From the NCBI RefSeq assembly GCF_021730305.1, contig NZ_CP032674.1, positions 1,473,001-1,537,000 on the forward strand: DNA of 64,000 nucleotides. The letters run 5' to 3'. A program made the position numbers and the translations under genes. Shown here piece after piece: positions 1 through 3,794 of the stretch. The notes below the pieces were generated by a model, which made no database searches, was not told the DNA's origin, and saw only the letters and a program-made list of their open reading frames with translations. This DNA is from Xanthobacter sp. YC-JY1. GTDB lineage: Bacteria; Pseudomonadota; Alphaproteobacteria; Rhizobiales; Xanthobacteraceae. The stretch's first letter is position 1, and every line of letters starts with the position of its first letter.

Positions 1-556
1 CTTCGCCCTCGCCGCCATTCTGGGCGTGCCGCTGGGCATCGTGGTGGGCGCCAGCGAGAAATTCTATCGCTCCATTGAATTCCTGATCGACTTCTTCCGC
101 TCCACGCCGGCCACGGCCATGTTTCCGCTGTTCATGATCATTTTCGGCCTCGGCGACTTCTCCAAGATCTCGGTGGCGGCCTTCGCGGCCTTCCTCGTCA
201 TCCTGTTCAACGTGGCCTATGGCGTGATGCACGCGCGGCCCACCCGCATGCTGGCGGCCCGCGTGATGGGCGCCTCCCGCCTGCGCGTGTTCAAGGACGT
301 GATGTTCTACGAGAGCCTGCCGCAGACCTTCATCGGACTGCGCACCGGCGTGTCCATGGCGCTGGTGGTGATCGTTGTGGCGGAGATGTTCATCGGCTCC
401 GACAACGGCCTCGGCAAGCGCATCATCGACAGCCAGATCACCTTCGACCTGCCGCAGCTCTACGGCACCATCCTGGTGTCCGGCATCCTCGGCTACGGCC
501 TCAACCTTCTGTTTCTCGCCGCCGAGAAGCTGCTGGTCCACTGGGCCGGCCGCTGA
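1..556 (+). CDS. ABC transporter permease, NitT/TauT (SsuC-like) type, 5' partial
   Basis: Membrane-spanning subunit of an importer for a small anion or organic nitrogen/sulfur compound. The open frame runs in from the left edge (first full codon at position 2), so the N-terminus is missing; the first in-frame start codon is an internal GTG at 26. The visible 180 or so residues hold several hydrophobic helices and a BPD_transp_1-type EAA loop (VMGASRLRVFKDVMFYESLP), which docks on the ATPase. The frame ends at TGA 554-556. A binding-protein gene follows 53 bases later and an ATPase gene after that, so permease, binding protein and ATPase form one importer. The substrate cannot be read from the sequence; the nitrile hydratase/thiocyanate hydrolase-like genes downstream suggest a nitrile, cyanide-derived or thiocyanate-like compound (inference). 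Confidence 0.9.
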   Translation, partial: FALAAILGVPLGIVVGASEKFYRSIEFLIDFFRSTPATAMFPLFMIIFGLGDFSKISVAAFAAFLVILFNVAYGVMHARPTRMLAARVMGASRLRVFKDVMFYESLPQTFIGLRTGVSMALVVIVVAEMFIGSDNGLGKRIIDSQITFDLPQLYGTILVSGILGYGLNLLFLAAEKLLVHWAGR

Positions 557-609
557 CCGCCCCTGCCTTGTCCCGCCCTGCTCTGTCCTGCCCCCTGAAG
601 GAACCGACC

Positions 610-1614
610 ATGACCACCCGCCGCAATTTTGTTCTCGGCGCCGGCGCCGGCGCCGCGACGCTCGCCGCCGCCTCGTCCTTCCCCCGGCCGCTCCGGGCCC
701 AGCCGAAGGAGAAGGTGGTGGTCTCCTGGCTCCCCATCATGCAGTCCTTCGCCTATTACGTGGCGCTGGAGCAGAAGCTGTTCGAGAAGCGCGGCATCGA
801 GATCGAGTCCGTGCGCTTCCAGGCGCCCAACCAGATCATCGATTCCCTCGTTTCCGGCCGGGCCGATGCCGGCGCGCCGGGCGCCGCCGCCGGCATCGCG
901 GTGATCGCCGAGACGCAGTTTCCCGGTACGTTCAAGGTGTTCGGCCTGCAGGGCGGCGGCATCAAGGTGAACCGCATCAACGATGCGCTCATCGTCGCCA
1001 ACAATTCCCCCATCGCCACCTTCGGCGATCTGAAGGGCAAGTCGCTGGGCCACCTGCCGGGCATCCAGTGGCGCACCCTCTCGCGCTACATGGTGCGAAA
1101 GGCGGGCCTCGATCCGGACAAGGACGTGCGCCTCGTGGAGCTCGCCGTGGGCCTTCAGGTGCAGGCGGTGGTGGCGGGCACGGTGGATGCCACCTTGTCC
1201 CTGGAGCCGGTCGGCTCCATCGCCGTCGCGCTGGGCGAGGCCAAGCGCGCCATCACCAATCCCATGTCGCTCGCGGTCTACGACCCGTTCTATTCGGGCG
1301 TGTCGCTGCTCACCACCAAGTTCATCAAGGAGCGGCCCAAGGTGGCCAAGGCCTTCGTGGAAGCGCTCGACGAGGCCACCATCATGGCCGAGAAGAATTA
1401 CACTTCCCTGCGCTCCATCCTGCCCGCCTACACGGCGGTGAAGCCGGACCAGGTGGAGATCGTGGCCCAGCCTTATCTGCGGCCGTGGACCGAGCTGAAC
1501 GAGACCGACCTCACCTCCTACCAGACCTTCGTCAACGTGTTCCGGTCCGAGGGCGCGCTGAAGCAGGACTTCGACATCAAGCCCTTCATTCTGAAGCCGT
1601 CCGACCTGTCATGA
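610..1614 (+). CDS. ABC transporter substrate-binding protein, NitT/TauT family
   Basis: Periplasmic ligand-binding protein of 334 residues. The start ATG at 610 follows a GAAGGA ribosome site; an upstream in-frame GTG at 568 is less likely. The N-terminus TTRRNFVLGAGAGAA has the twin-arginine pattern followed by an Ala-rich hydrophobic stretch, so Tat export is probable. The mature part begins with a beta-strand and helix pattern typical of the SsuA/TauA/NrtA group (WLPIMQSFAYYVALEQKLFE, then FQAPNQIIDSLVSGRADAG). The stop overlaps the next start as ATGA at 1611-1614, showing translational coupling with the ATPase. The ligand is unknown; see the enzyme genes at 2459-3794. Confidence 0.92.
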   Translation: MTTRRNFVLGAGAGAATLAAASSFPRPLRAQPKEKVVVSWLPIMQSFAYYVALEQKLFEKRGIEIESVRFQAPNQIIDSLVSGRADAGAPGAAAGIAVIAETQFPGTFKVFGLQGGGIKVNRINDALIVANNSPIATFGDLKGKSLGHLPGIQWRTLSRYMVRKAGLDPDKDVRLVELAVGLQVQAVVAGTVDATLSLEPVGSIAVALGEAKRAITNPMSLAVYDPFYSGVSLLTTKFIKERPKVAKAFVEALDEATIMAEKNYTSLRSILPAYTAVKPDQVEIVAQPYLRPWTELNETDLTSYQTFVNVFRSEGALKQDFDIKPFILKPSDLS

Positions 1615-2462
1615 CCGCCCCTGTCATAACTGCGGTGGAGCCCGCCACGCGTGAGCCGGCAGGGGGCGCCCCCCTGCCGGACCTCACCTGGTTCACGCCC
1701 GGCACGCACATCACCATTCGCGGGCTCAACAAGACGTTCCGCGGCAATCCGGTCTATACCGGCTTCGACATCGACTTCCCGCGCGGGGGCATCGTCTCCA
1801 TCTTCGGGCCGAACGGCTGCGGGAAGTCCACGCTCATCAACATGATCTCCGGCATCCTGCCCTATGATGCCGGCCAGATCCTGTTCGACGGCAAGACCAT
1901 CGCCGAAACGCGCATCGGCTATGTGTTCCAGAACTATCGCGAGGCGCTGTTTCCCTGGCAGAGAGCCATCGACAACATCCATTACCCGCTGAAGATGATG
2001 GGCGTGCCCAAGACGGAGCGGGAGCGGCGCATCGAGAAGCTGGCGGCGCAGTTCGACCTCAAGTTCGACCTCAACCGCTACCCCTATGAAATGTCCGGCG
2101 GCCAGCAGCAGACGGTCTCCATCATGCGCGCGCTGGTGGTGGATCCGGAGGTCCTGTTCCTCGACGAGCCCTTCTCCGCGCTCGACTACGAGATGACACT
2201 GACCATGCGCGACCTTTTGCAGAAGGTGCTCACCGAGACGCGCACCACCACCCTGCTCGTCAGCCATGATTTGGAGGAGGCCGTCTGGCTTTCCGACAAG
2301 GTACTCCTGCTCACCCGCCGGCCGTCCCGCATTGCCGAATACATGGACATCGACTTGCCCCGGCCGCGCAATTCCGAAACCATCTCGGACCCGCGCTTCG
2401 TGGCACTGAAGGCCCACGCGCTGGAGGTGTTCCAGACGGCGGTGAGGAGCAGCGCCCCATGA
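1611..2462 (+). CDS. ABC transporter ATP-binding protein, NitT/TauT (SsuB-like) type
   Basis: Cytoplasmic ATPase of 283 residues that powers the importer encoded just upstream. Visible motifs in order: Walker A GPNGCGKST, Q-loop QNYREALFPW, a signature-like segment MSGGQQQT, Walker B VLFLDEPFSALD and H-loop LLVSHD. An N-terminal extension of about 35 residues precedes the ABC fold. The start overlaps the binding-protein stop (ATGA) and its own stop overlaps the next gene (ATGA at 2459-2462), so transporter and the hydratase-like enzyme genes are one tightly coupled transcript. Confidence 0.93.
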   Translation: MTAPVITAVEPATREPAGGAPLPDLTWFTPGTHITIRGLNKTFRGNPVYTGFDIDFPRGGIVSIFGPNGCGKSTLINMISGILPYDAGQILFDGKTIAETRIGYVFQNYREALFPWQRAIDNIHYPLKMMGVPKTERERRIEKLAAQFDLKFDLNRYPYEMSGGQQQTVSIMRALVVDPEVLFLDEPFSALDYEMTLTMRDLLQKVLTETRTTTLLVSHDLEEAVWLSDKVLLLTRRPSRIAEYMDIDLPRPRNSETISDPRFVALKAHALEVFQTAVRSSAP

Positions 2463-2875
2463 CTTCAGACGCGCCCCAGGGCCAGCCGGAAGGCCCCTTT
2501 CGCGGCTATCACGACATCGGCGGCCGGCCGGCCGGCGCGGTCGCGAAGGACGAATACGCCTTCGCCGACTGGCAGAAGCTGTCCGAGGCCATGCGCGGCG
2601 CGCTGGAGGCCAAGGGGCGCATTGTCTCCCTGGACGAGATCCGCCGCGTGTTCGAGAGCTTCGGCGAGGATCTCTACAACACCCTCGGCTTCTACGAGCG
2701 GCGGGCGGAAGCCCTCACCGTGCTGCTGGACGAGAAGGGCATCGTGCCCCGCGCCGCCGTGCTGGCGCGGATGGAGGCCATCGCCGCCATGGAATGCCGG
2801 CAGGTGGACCACGTGACCAAGACGGTTACGAACAAGCCCACGATCTCACCGCCGGCCGGGAGCGCCGCACCATGA
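2459..2875 (+). CDS. Thiocyanate hydrolase beta-like subunit (nitrile hydratase beta N-terminal half)
   Basis: A 138-residue protein matching the N-terminal half of nitrile hydratase beta subunits: it has the YHDIGG segment (residues 20 or so; YDVGG in nitrile hydratases), an acidic Trp-containing helix, then the alpha-helical stretch GEDLYNTLGFYERRAEALTV. In classical nitrile hydratases this part is fused to a C-terminal SH3-like domain; here that domain is the separate next gene, as in thiocyanate hydrolase (ScnB, ScnA, ScnC) and toyocamycin nitrile hydratase. It should form a structural subunit of a cytoplasmic cobalt enzyme hydrating a C-N triple bond. Start and stop overlap both neighbours. 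Whether the substrate is thiocyanate or a nitrile is open. Confidence 0.75.
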   Translation: MTSDAPQGQPEGPFRGYHDIGGRPAGAVAKDEYAFADWQKLSEAMRGALEAKGRIVSLDEIRRVFESFGEDLYNTLGFYERRAEALTVLLDEKGIVPRAAVLARMEAIAAMECRQVDHVTKTVTNKPTISPPAGSAAP

Positions 2876-3174
2876 GCGCTCCCCGCTTCGCGCCGGGCGA
2901 TCGCGTGCGGATCCTCGACATCGGCAAGCCGGGCCATGTGCGCATTCCCTGGTATGTGCGGCACAAGGTGGGGGTGGTGGAGCGCCATTGCGGCGCCTAT
3001 CCCAATCCCGAGGAATTGTCCTGCGCGCGGCCGGGCCTGCCGGCCATCGACCTCTATCGCGTGCGGCTCGGCCAGCGCGACCTGTGGCCTGATTATGCCG
3101 GGGCGCCCGACGATACGCTGGAGATCGAAGTCTACGACCACTGGCTCGCGCCCGCACAGGACGATGCCCCATGA
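2872..3174 (+). CDS. Thiocyanate hydrolase alpha-like subunit (nitrile hydratase beta C-terminal SH3-like domain)
   Basis: A 100-residue protein equal to the C-terminal SH3-like domain of nitrile hydratase beta: FAPGDRVRILDIGKPGHVR, then PWYVRHKVGVVERHCGAYPNP and a closing YRVRLGQRDLW segment. The ATG at 2872 overlaps the previous stop as ATGA; a longer in-frame start at 2794 would lie inside the preceding gene and is rejected. In thiocyanate hydrolase the homologous subunit is called alpha. With the genes at 2459 and 3171 it would make an alpha-beta-gamma protomer. The order N-half, C-half, metal subunit is the order of scnB-scnA-scnC as I recall it from Thiobacillus thioparus. Confidence 0.78.
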   Translation: MSAPRFAPGDRVRILDIGKPGHVRIPWYVRHKVGVVERHCGAYPNPEELSCARPGLPAIDLYRVRLGQRDLWPDYAGAPDDTLEIEVYDHWLAPAQDDAP

Positions 3175-3794
3175 CCTCCACACCCGCCGAAATGAGCGCC
3201 ATCCCCGTGATCGAGGGGTATGACGGCGCGGACTATTACGCCCTGATGACTCGGGCCCTGCACCAGATCCTGCTGGAGGAGGGTCTCCTCGCCCCCGAGG
3301 AGACGGACAAGGTGATCGCCGCTTTGGAGGCCCCAAGGCCCGAATGGGGCGCGCGGCTGGTGGCGCGGGCCTGGGTGGACACCGCCTTCAAGGCCCGCCT
3401 TCTGGCGGACGGCGCCAGCGCCGCCGCGGAGCTGGGCTTCACCATCAAGGAGGCGCAGCTGGTGGTGGTGGAGAATACCGACGATCTCCACAACCTCATC
3501 GTCTGCACCCTGTGCTCGTGCTATCCGCGCTCCCTGCTGGGCCAGCCGCCGTGGTGGTACATCTCCAAATCCTACCGCGCCCGTGCCGTGCGCGAGCCGC
3601 GCGCGGTGCTGGAGGAATTCGGCATGGCCCTGCCGGAAAGCGTGCATGTGCGCGTCCACGACAGCAATGCGGACATGCGCTACCTCGTGCTGCCCCGCCG
3701 CCCGGCTGGCACGGAGGACGCGCGCGAGGAGGATCTCGCCCGTCTCGTCACCCGCGACAGCATGATCGGCACGGCCCAAGTCTCCGCGTCTTAG
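3171..3794 (+). CDS. Cobalt-type nitrile hydratase alpha / thiocyanate hydrolase gamma subunit
   Basis: Catalytic subunit of 207 residues. The metal claw motif C112-T-L-C115-S-C117 is intact; in this family the second and third cysteines become oxidised and bind a non-corrin Co(III) (Thr in position 2 is the cobalt-type signature). It is followed by YPRSLLGQ. Classical nitrile hydratases usually read YPW..LGL or TPW..LGL here, whereas the thiocyanate hydrolase gamma chain, as I recall it, reads YPR..LGQ, which leans the call towards thiocyanate hydrolase. The C-terminal block (RYLVLPRRPAGTE, LVTRDSMIG) is standard for the family. No activator/cobalt-chaperone gene follows. Start overlaps the previous stop (ATGA). 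A degenerate kdpE fragment begins 22 bases after the stop. Confidence 0.85.
   Translation: MTSTPAEMSAIPVIEGYDGADYYALMTRALHQILLEEGLLAPEETDKVIAALEAPRPEWGARLVARAWVDTAFKARLLADGASAAAELGFTIKEAQLVVVENTDDLHNLIVCTLCSCYPRSLLGQPPWWYISKSYRARAVREPRAVLEEFGMALPESVHVRVHDSNADMRYLVLPRRPAGTEDAREEDLARLVTRDSMIGTAQVSAS

What the first reader, a model, noticed from the sequence alone, without database searches (positions are those of the whole stretch)
1..3794. ABC importer coupled to a three-subunit thiocyanate hydrolase / nitrile hydratase-like enzyme
Seen: permease, binding protein, ATPase, then three genes whose products equal the beta N-half, beta C-half and alpha chain of nitrile hydratase, the last with C112-T-L-C115-S-C117; starts and stops overlap from 1611 on. 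Known: split beta chains occur in thiocyanate hydrolase and toyocamycin nitrile hydratase. Inferred: a dedicated uptake-plus-hydrolysis module for thiocyanate, a nitrile or a related pseudohalide. YPR and LGQ after the metal motif lean to thiocyanate hydrolase. No activator gene accompanies it.
Basis: partly seen in the sequence, partly recalled or inferred. Interest (0 to 1): 0.75.

Follow-up and report, generated by a model that had tools for sequence, protein, structure and literature searches.

The report
Importer-coupled nitrile hydratase feeding biuret breakdown
This is a conserved gene set that probably imports a small nitrogen-rich cyano compound, hydrates it with a three-part cobalt nitrile hydratase and passes the product to a biuret-degrading enzyme, which would be a new way into a known nitrogen-scavenging pathway.

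Summary
In detail: permease, binding protein, ATPase, split nitrile-hydratase beta halves and alpha chain, overlapping by ATGA from 1611 on, with no activator gene beside them. The linkage is real: an orthologous importer sits directly before the same enzyme in four genus-level groups (eight loci), and close by in Beijerinckia. The thiocyanate lean is weak: the alpha chain passes the nitrile-hydratase model (narrowly), fails the thiocyanate-hydrolase model, and YPR marks the whole split-beta class. Just outside the window, divergent from the operon, lies a biuret hydrolase with all 16 tested active-site residues; the same arrangement recurs in the sister locus and four loci of another family. 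In seven sampled genomes the importer is instead followed by a tandem nitrilase-family protein, twice with allophanate hydrolase next to it; two Rhodobacteraceae relatives have an amidase and allophanate hydrolase beside the hydratase. Best reading: an imported cyano-ureide, most simply cyanourea, is hydrated to biuret, then to allophanate and ammonia. Substrate and activity are inferred, not shown. Against: relatives in the same clade pair with formamidase, and thiocyanate, other N-cyano compounds or plain biuret import are not excluded. New variant of a known kind.

The parts
1..556 (+). ABC importer permease (last 184 of 255 aa; start lies 211 bases upstream of the window)
   Evidence: PF00528; full ORF L003:12789-13556
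610..1614 (+). substrate-binding protein, SsuA/TauA/NMT1 superfamily, with signal-like N-terminus
   Evidence: PF13379, PF09084; TIGR01728 below cut-off; model pLDDT 84.3, nearest solved folds SsuA, TauA
1611..2462 (+). ABC ATPase
   Evidence: PF00005; ATGA overlap with the binding-protein gene
2459..2875 (+). nitrile hydratase beta N-half
   Evidence: PF21006; Arg46 (codon 2594-2596), opposite pocket-side Ser/Leu of solved beta chains, is Arg in 17 of 17 rows of the LGQ group
2872..3174 (+). nitrile hydratase beta C-half
   Evidence: PF02211; ATGA start at 2872
3171..3794 (+). nitrile hydratase alpha chain
   Evidence: PF02979; TIGR01323 250.0, cut-off 249.85
3504..3521 (+). metal motif C112-T-L-C115-S-C117 (cobalt type, T in second place)
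   Evidence: sequence; invariant in 9 aligned relatives
3522..3563 (+). YPRSLLGQPPWWYI: class-marking Arg120 and group-marking Gln125

Best explanation
A nitrogen-scavenging module. The ABC importer brings in a small cyano compound with a ureido part; the cobalt three-subunit nitrile hydratase hydrates its C-N triple bond to an amide; and the divergent biuret hydrolase (BiuH) takes the amide, biuret, to allophanate, which the allophanate hydrolase encoded elsewhere in the genome turns into ammonia and CO2. The simplest nitrile that fits is cyanourea. Shown: gene content, operon overlap, conserved linkage, identity of the biuret hydrolase, presence of allophanate hydrolase. Inferred: import, cobalt, hydration, the substrate, and hand-over to BiuH. 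General form (imported cyano compound feeding the biuret/allophanate route) about 0.5; cyanourea in particular about 0.35.
For: (1) The importer directly precedes bN-bC-alpha in the window, L035, L075-L078, L084 and L086, and in L132 with one extra binding protein between. (2) Of 397 genomes of the order, 16 hold a binding-protein relative at E 1e-50 or better; the 14 with 58% identity or more all have, directly after the ATPase gene, either the split hydratase (7) or a tandem CN-hydrolase of about 557 aa, 'nit557' (7). Exchange of a nitrilase-type enzyme for hydratase plus amidase suggests one imported nitrile. (3) BiuH divergent in 6 of 17 LGQ loci; NF050097 423 bits, cut-off 370; all 16 tested positions as in characterised BiuH (positions from passages of PMC5806882 and PMC7948467). 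(4) All 9 genomes with importer-linked hydratase have BiuH: 8 over the cut-off, the ninth (G435) cut by a contig end at 332 bits, against 32 of 170 genomes of the order. In three of them (G309, G295, Beijerinckia) BiuH lies elsewhere. (5) Allophanate hydrolase stands next to nit557 in L263 and L265 and near the hydratase in L190 and L202; it is over the cut-off in 10 of 10 genomes tested, the window's included. (6) In the window's own genome no full-length cyanuric acid hydrolase was found (a 36-position match only) and no second BiuH-family hit in the 230-270-bit range of triuret-hydrolase-like proteins (116 bits), so BiuH lacks those two known sources of biuret. (7) A three-subunit hydratase of the same gene order, AnhD-AnhE-AnhA of Streptomyces canus, has no activator and hydrates the N-cyano insecticides acetamiprid and thiacloprid (PMC7329996, abstract and passages).
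Against: No activity or ligand data. BiuH adjacency arose once on this tree (six rows, 100/99), and in G309, G295 and L132 it is elsewhere, in G309 and G295 near a triuret-hydrolase-range gene. Eight of ten genomes tested do have cyanuric acid hydrolase, which could explain their BiuH. Relatives in the same LGQ group pair with formamidase (L036, L039, L079, L080, L081, L134), so the group may act on cyanide or several cyano compounds. Three of eight nit557 genomes also have BiuH over the cut-off. nit557 may be an amidase rather than a nitrilase (NF040852 254.7, cut-off 500). Cyanourea as a natural nutrient is not documented in the papers found.
Confidence: 0.5

Rival explanations
1. The importer brings in biuret itself; BiuH (or nit557) is the enzyme for it, and the hydratase is a co-carried enzyme for some separate cyano compound.
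For: BiuH is bona fide by sequence. nit557 could be an amidase that replaces BiuH: five of eight nit557 genomes lack BiuH over the cut-off. Binding-protein homologues at about 50% identity sit beside a D-hydantoinase (L267, TIGR02033 563, cut-off 393; L268 alike by ORF), hinting at a ureide ligand.
Against: In G309 and G295 the hydratase is the only enzyme in the importer operon, so it is the constant partner, not BiuH.
Confidence: 0.18
2. Other N-cyano substrate, such as dicyandiamide hydrated to guanylurea, or cyanamide to urea.
For: Split-beta relatives hydrate N-cyano groups (PMC7329996). Guanylurea hydrolase belongs to the BiuH superfamily (PMC12625717, passages).
Against: The neighbouring hydrolase is BiuH at all 16 tested positions; a 303-bit relative (L283) with changes at 145, 215 and 218 is not what is found here. 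No guanidine-pathway gene was identified among the neighbours examined, but none was searched for by model.
Confidence: 0.12
3. A thiocyanate hydrolase with its own importer.
For: Split beta chain; the 20 residues from C112 are nearest to thiocyanate hydrolase gamma; a second pocket-side Arg (bN Arg46) is invariant in the group, which would suit an anion.
Against: TIGR03887 182.4, cut-off 291.45; TIGR01323 just passed. Whole-chain match to 2dd4_C ranks 34th of 36. YPR/YPK in 117 of 118 split loci. Partners are BiuH, AtzF, formamidase. True thiocyanate hydrolase could not be placed in the tree.
Confidence: 0.1
4. A cyanide-type hydratase making formamide, with BiuH only a chance neighbour in one lineage.
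For: Formamidase beside six LGQ relatives, in both an alphaproteobacterial arrangement and an Ectothiorhodospiraceae MAG (L134).
Against: No formamidase relative was found within the 20-kb stretches of the window's own locus or L035; BiuH is kept there in two genus-level groups.
Confidence: 0.1

Closest known systems
Three-subunit nitrile hydratase AnhD-AnhE-AnhA of Streptomyces canus CGMCC 13662 (PMC7329996)
   Same: Gene order beta N-half, beta C-half, alpha; no activator gene; cobalt; acts on N-cyano compounds (paper abstract and passages).
   Different: No importer or biuret hydrolase is described in the passages seen. Its sequence was not at hand, so identity and tree position are untested.
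Thiocyanate hydrolase (ScnABC; 2dd4/2dd5)
   Same: Split beta chain; CTLCSCYPR..LGQ stretch.
   Different: Whole-chain similarity lower than to nitrile hydratases; fails TIGR03887.
Toyocamycin nitrile hydratase (ToyJKL)
   Same: Three subunits with split beta (recalled; mentioned in PMC7329996).
   Different: Antibiotic biosynthesis (recalled); not compared by sequence.
Co-type fused-beta nitrile hydratase with activator (3qxe and others; this genome's own second copy, L004:9477-11206)
   Same: Alpha fold and metal motif; about 50% identity to the window alpha.
   Different: Fused beta, YPW (WPW in this genome's copy), activator gene; separate side of the tree.
Biuret hydrolase BiuH of Rhizobium leguminosarum (6azo)
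   Same: The divergent neighbour: 401.6 bits over 225 residues, all 16 tested active-site positions.
   Different: There it acts in cyanuric acid breakdown (PMC5806882); here it faces an importer-hydratase operon.

Membership tests
nitrile hydratase superfamily (alpha, beta) | alpha-chain model match with CTLCSC metal motif | tested here: met
   PF02979 259.1 bits; TIGR01323 250.0, cut-off 249.85, a bare pass
nitrile hydratase superfamily (alpha, beta) | beta chain, both halves | tested here: met
   PF21006 and PF02211 over cut-offs on two separate genes; the beta equivalog TIGR03888 is below its cut-off for each half (30.9 and 71.2, cut-off 152.2)
ordinary fused-beta nitrile hydratase | one beta gene and an activator gene | tested here: not met
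   beta split; activator-like hits of 50 bits or more in 0 of 123 YPR/YPK loci and 21 of 33 others (query from this genome's activator, which resembles the beta N-half)
three-subunit (split-beta) nitrile hydratase | bN-bC-alpha genes, basic residue after CTLCSCYP | tested here: met
   117 of 118 split loci YPR/YPK; tree position
thiocyanate hydrolase | gamma-subunit equivalog model | tested here: not met
   TIGR03887 182.4, cut-off 291.45
thiocyanate hydrolase | turnover of thiocyanate | not testable with these tools
   needs enzyme assay
thiocyanate hydrolase | clade membership with ScnC | not tested
   no sequence over the model cut-off in 398 and 390 genomes searched
biuret hydrolase (neighbour gene) | equivalog model and active-site residues | tested here: met
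   NF050097 423.1, cut-off 370; 16 of 16 positions
nitrate/sulfonate/taurine-type ABC importer | binding protein, permease and ATPase of that family | tested here: met
   none of the substrate-specific equivalogs reaches its cut-off, so the ligand is not told

The most novel reading that the evidence does not exclude
A new entry into biuret/allophanate metabolism: bacteria import cyanourea (or a close cyano-ureide) and a three-subunit cobalt nitrile hydratase makes biuret from it, while other lineages with an orthologous importer do the net reaction with a tandem nitrilase-family enzyme. The split-beta class with its basic pocket residue would then be an 'inorganic and N-cyano' branch of the superfamily, thiocyanate hydrolase included.
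Probability: 0.33. Interest if true: 0.75.

Novelty: new variant of a known kind. Interest (0 to 1): 0.55.

Why it matters
Known sources of biuret for BiuH are cyanuric acid and triuret (passages of PMC7948467). A nitrile hydratase that makes biuret, with its own importer, would be a further source, would give cyanourea or a related cyano-ureide a biological fate, and would assign a function to one group of the large and mostly uncharacterised split-beta class. The prediction is directly testable with a ligand screen and a coupled ammonia assay.

Tried and rejected
Rejected: thiocyanate hydrolase by the YPR/LGQ argument. A short 36-position hit to cyanuric acid hydrolase in the own genome was not counted as a gene. 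Searches for true thiocyanate hydrolase gamma in 398 and 390 genomes gave none over the cut-off. Solved thiocyanate hydrolase beta did not match a bN relative even at E 10, so I could not test whether its pocket Arg corresponds to bN Arg46. Papers: searches; cyanourea gives five papers, none of whose titles or abstract openings concerns bacterial metabolism; nitrile hydratase with biuret and ABC transporter gives one, PMC12625717, whose passages list the genes but do not link them. PMC10098168 and PMC4051656 were seen as passages only. The binding-protein model gave only its superfamily, not the ligand.

Rows dropped: five alpha sequences without the CxLCSC motif (L097, L098, L099, L102, L201) were left out of the motif counts, the tree and the Arg46 count; L201 belongs by sequence with the LGQ group, so that group would be 18. 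L082 had no alpha hit. At least two loci occur twice in the counts (L041 with L151, L015 with L044). Flanks differ: many fused-beta loci hold only about 2 kb on each side, some contigs end early, so absence of a neighbour is a lower bound. In one search only five candidates per genome were scored.
Full report
The genes. The window begins inside a permease gene whose start lies 211 bases upstream. Then follow a binding protein (610-1614), an ATPase (1611-2462), a nitrile-hydratase beta N-half (2459-2875), a beta C-half (2872-3174) and an alpha chain (3171-3794), each from 1611 on joined to the one before by ATGA. The window is G000:C1:1473001-1537000 of a single 5.39-Mb contig. An ordinary fused-beta nitrile hydratase with an activator gene lies elsewhere in the genome (L004), so activator help in trans is possible, but split-beta loci in general lack an activator (0 of 123 YPR/YPK loci against 21 of 33 others with a hit of 50 bits or more).

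The class. In 118 loci scored as split with a readable motif, the metal motif is followed by YPR or YPK in 117 (the exception, L018, has YPW); fused or undetermined loci have mostly YPW, six have YPR. In the maximum-likelihood tree of 156 alpha rows the 30 YPW/WPW rows sit on one side of a branch with support 100/100. The window row groups with L035 (same genus) and four loci of another family (100/99). Rows with LGQPPxWYI form a group of 17 (18 with L201, dropped for its changed motif), interleaved with an LGE group of eight; the enclosing fork has support of only 89/79. In the LGQ group Arg46 of the beta N-half is kept in 17 of 17; the LGE group has Phe in 8 of 8; other YPR loci vary, with 18 of 87 Arg. 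Solved beta chains have Ser or Leu there. That this position lines the pocket is recalled, not tested.

Not simply thiocyanate hydrolase. TIGR01323 is passed by 0.15 bits and TIGR03887 is missed by 109. Fused-beta hydratases reach 198 bits on the thiocyanate model, above the window's 181. The local likeness is real: over 20 residues the thiocyanate hydrolase gamma chain is the best solved match, over 33 residues it is ninth, over the whole chain 34th of 36.

The missed neighbour. Divergent from the permease, 331 bases away by the longest ORF, is a biuret hydrolase: 401.6 bits to Rhizobium BiuH, 363.7 to the Herbaspirillum enzyme, 221 to triuret hydrolase (that 6xix is triuret hydrolase follows from PMC7948467, which names its companion entries), NF050097 423.1 with cut-off 370. 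Sixteen positions named in PMC5806882 and PMC7948467 (passages) all agree, including Tyr53, Asp173 and Val218, which differ in triuret hydrolase.

Conserved linkage. Importer directly before bN-bC-alpha: window, L035, L075-L078, L084, L086; in L132 (Beijerinckia) with another binding protein between. BiuH is divergent in the window, L035 and L075-L078. From the binding-protein side, 16 of 397 genomes of the order have a relative at E 1e-50 or better. Fourteen are at 58% identity or more; seven have the hydratase and seven have nit557 directly after the ATPase gene. The two at about 50% sit beside a D-hydantoinase. nit557 has two CN-hydrolase stretches; the first keeps the Glu46, Lys120 and Cys153 expected of the superfamily (triad recalled), the second aligns Gly to that Cys. 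Its nearest solved relatives are small archaeal nitrilases (142.9 bits), but it passes no equivalog, so nitrilase or amidase is undecided.

Convergence on allophanate. nit557 is followed by allophanate hydrolase in L263 (TIGR02713 779.6, cut-off 511) and L265 (61% by tblastn). In L190 an amidase adjoins the alpha gene and allophanate hydrolase lies close by on the other strand (769.5 bits), and L202 has the same order. All ten genomes tested hold allophanate hydrolase over the cut-off; of 14 control genomes one does. BiuH is over the cut-off in eight of nine genomes with importer-linked hydratase, the ninth cut by a contig end, in both genomes behind L190 and L202, in three of eight with nit557, and in neither of two with only the formamidase-type locus, against 32 of 170 genomes of the order. 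Five importer-hydratase genomes are in that sample of 170 and all five have BiuH; a hand calculation gives about 2e-4 if they were independent, which they are not (four genus-level groups). Within the genera of G216 and G295, sampled members without an importer match (G261, G326; G260, G352) have no BiuH over the cut-off. Cyanuric acid hydrolase is full-length in eight of ten genomes tested, but in the window's own genome only a 36-position match was found, and its only other BiuH-family hit is at 116 bits, far below the triuret-hydrolase-like range. So in this organism BiuH lacks those two known sources of biuret, as far as these models see.

Mechanism. If the importer's substrate goes to a nitrilase-type enzyme in some lineages and to hydratase plus amidase in others, and both lead to allophanate, the nitrile is one whose amide is biuret, that is cyanourea. 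Precedent for hydration of an N-cyano group by a three-subunit enzyme without activator is AnhDEA of S. canus, which acts on acetamiprid and thiacloprid (PMC7329996). That cyanourea is acidic, and so would suit two arginines, is recalled chemistry. Import, metal, reaction and substrate are inferences.

Against. The LGQ group also pairs with formamidase in six loci (NF009803 582.5 for L036 and 567.1 for L134, cut-off 406; the other four 86-88% identical to L036), which points to formamide as product there. BiuH adjacency is confined to one clade. Biuret import, with the hydratase serving something else, fits many of the facts but not the operons whose only enzyme is the hydratase (L084, L086). 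Thiocyanate is not excluded, because no true thiocyanate hydrolase could be put in the tree.

In print. In the held library nitrile hydratase, biuret and ABC transporter occur together in one paper, PMC12625717, whose passages list nitrile hydratase and biuret hydrolase in ammonia oxidisers without linking them. Most subscription papers are not held.

Verdict. The enzyme is a member of the three-subunit nitrile hydratases; the importer-hydratase-BiuH arrangement and the exchange with a nitrilase-family protein are the new part.

Noticed in passing
L097:9147-9686, L098:9275-9814, L099:10320-10859, L102:10358-10897: Four genomes of one genus (f31 g77) carry a nitrile-hydratase alpha homologue beside a beta C-half in which all three metal cysteines are replaced (SSLGVS or SSLGAS instead of CTLCSC): a conserved form without the metal ligands.
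   Followed up: partly
L201:2666-3202: A Filomicrobium MAG has an LGQ-type alpha chain with CTLCSS, the third cysteine changed to serine.
   Followed up: no
L036:6405-7418, L134:9192-10220, and L039, L079, L080, L081: Formamidase adjoins LGQ-type three-subunit hydratases together with a second kind of binding protein, suggesting cyanide-to-formamide chemistry.
   Followed up: partly
L036:17649-19322, L081:15019-16692, L261-L266: A protein of about 557 aa with two nitrilase-family domains, the second without the catalytic cysteine, follows an orthologous importer; next to allophanate hydrolase in L263 and L265.
   Followed up: partly
L083, L085, L089-L095, L103: Loci of small genomes (0.9-1.6 Mb, family f4) have the gene order bN-alpha-bC instead of bN-bC-alpha (no bN hit in L103).
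   Followed up: no
L041, L042, L043, L151, L173: The LGE group has a large amidase-family protein of about 780 aa downstream of the alpha chain.
   Followed up: no
L283: A BiuH-like protein of G457 (303 bits, under the cut-off) with changes at positions 145, 215 and 218; possibly another substrate, such as guanylurea.
   Followed up: no
L040:2001-3179: Several beta-N-half-like stretches in tandem upstream of a beta C-half and an alpha chain.
   Followed up: no
L004:9477-11206: The genome's second, fused-beta nitrile hydratase has WPW instead of YPW after the metal motif and a His-rich alpha N-terminus.
   Followed up: no
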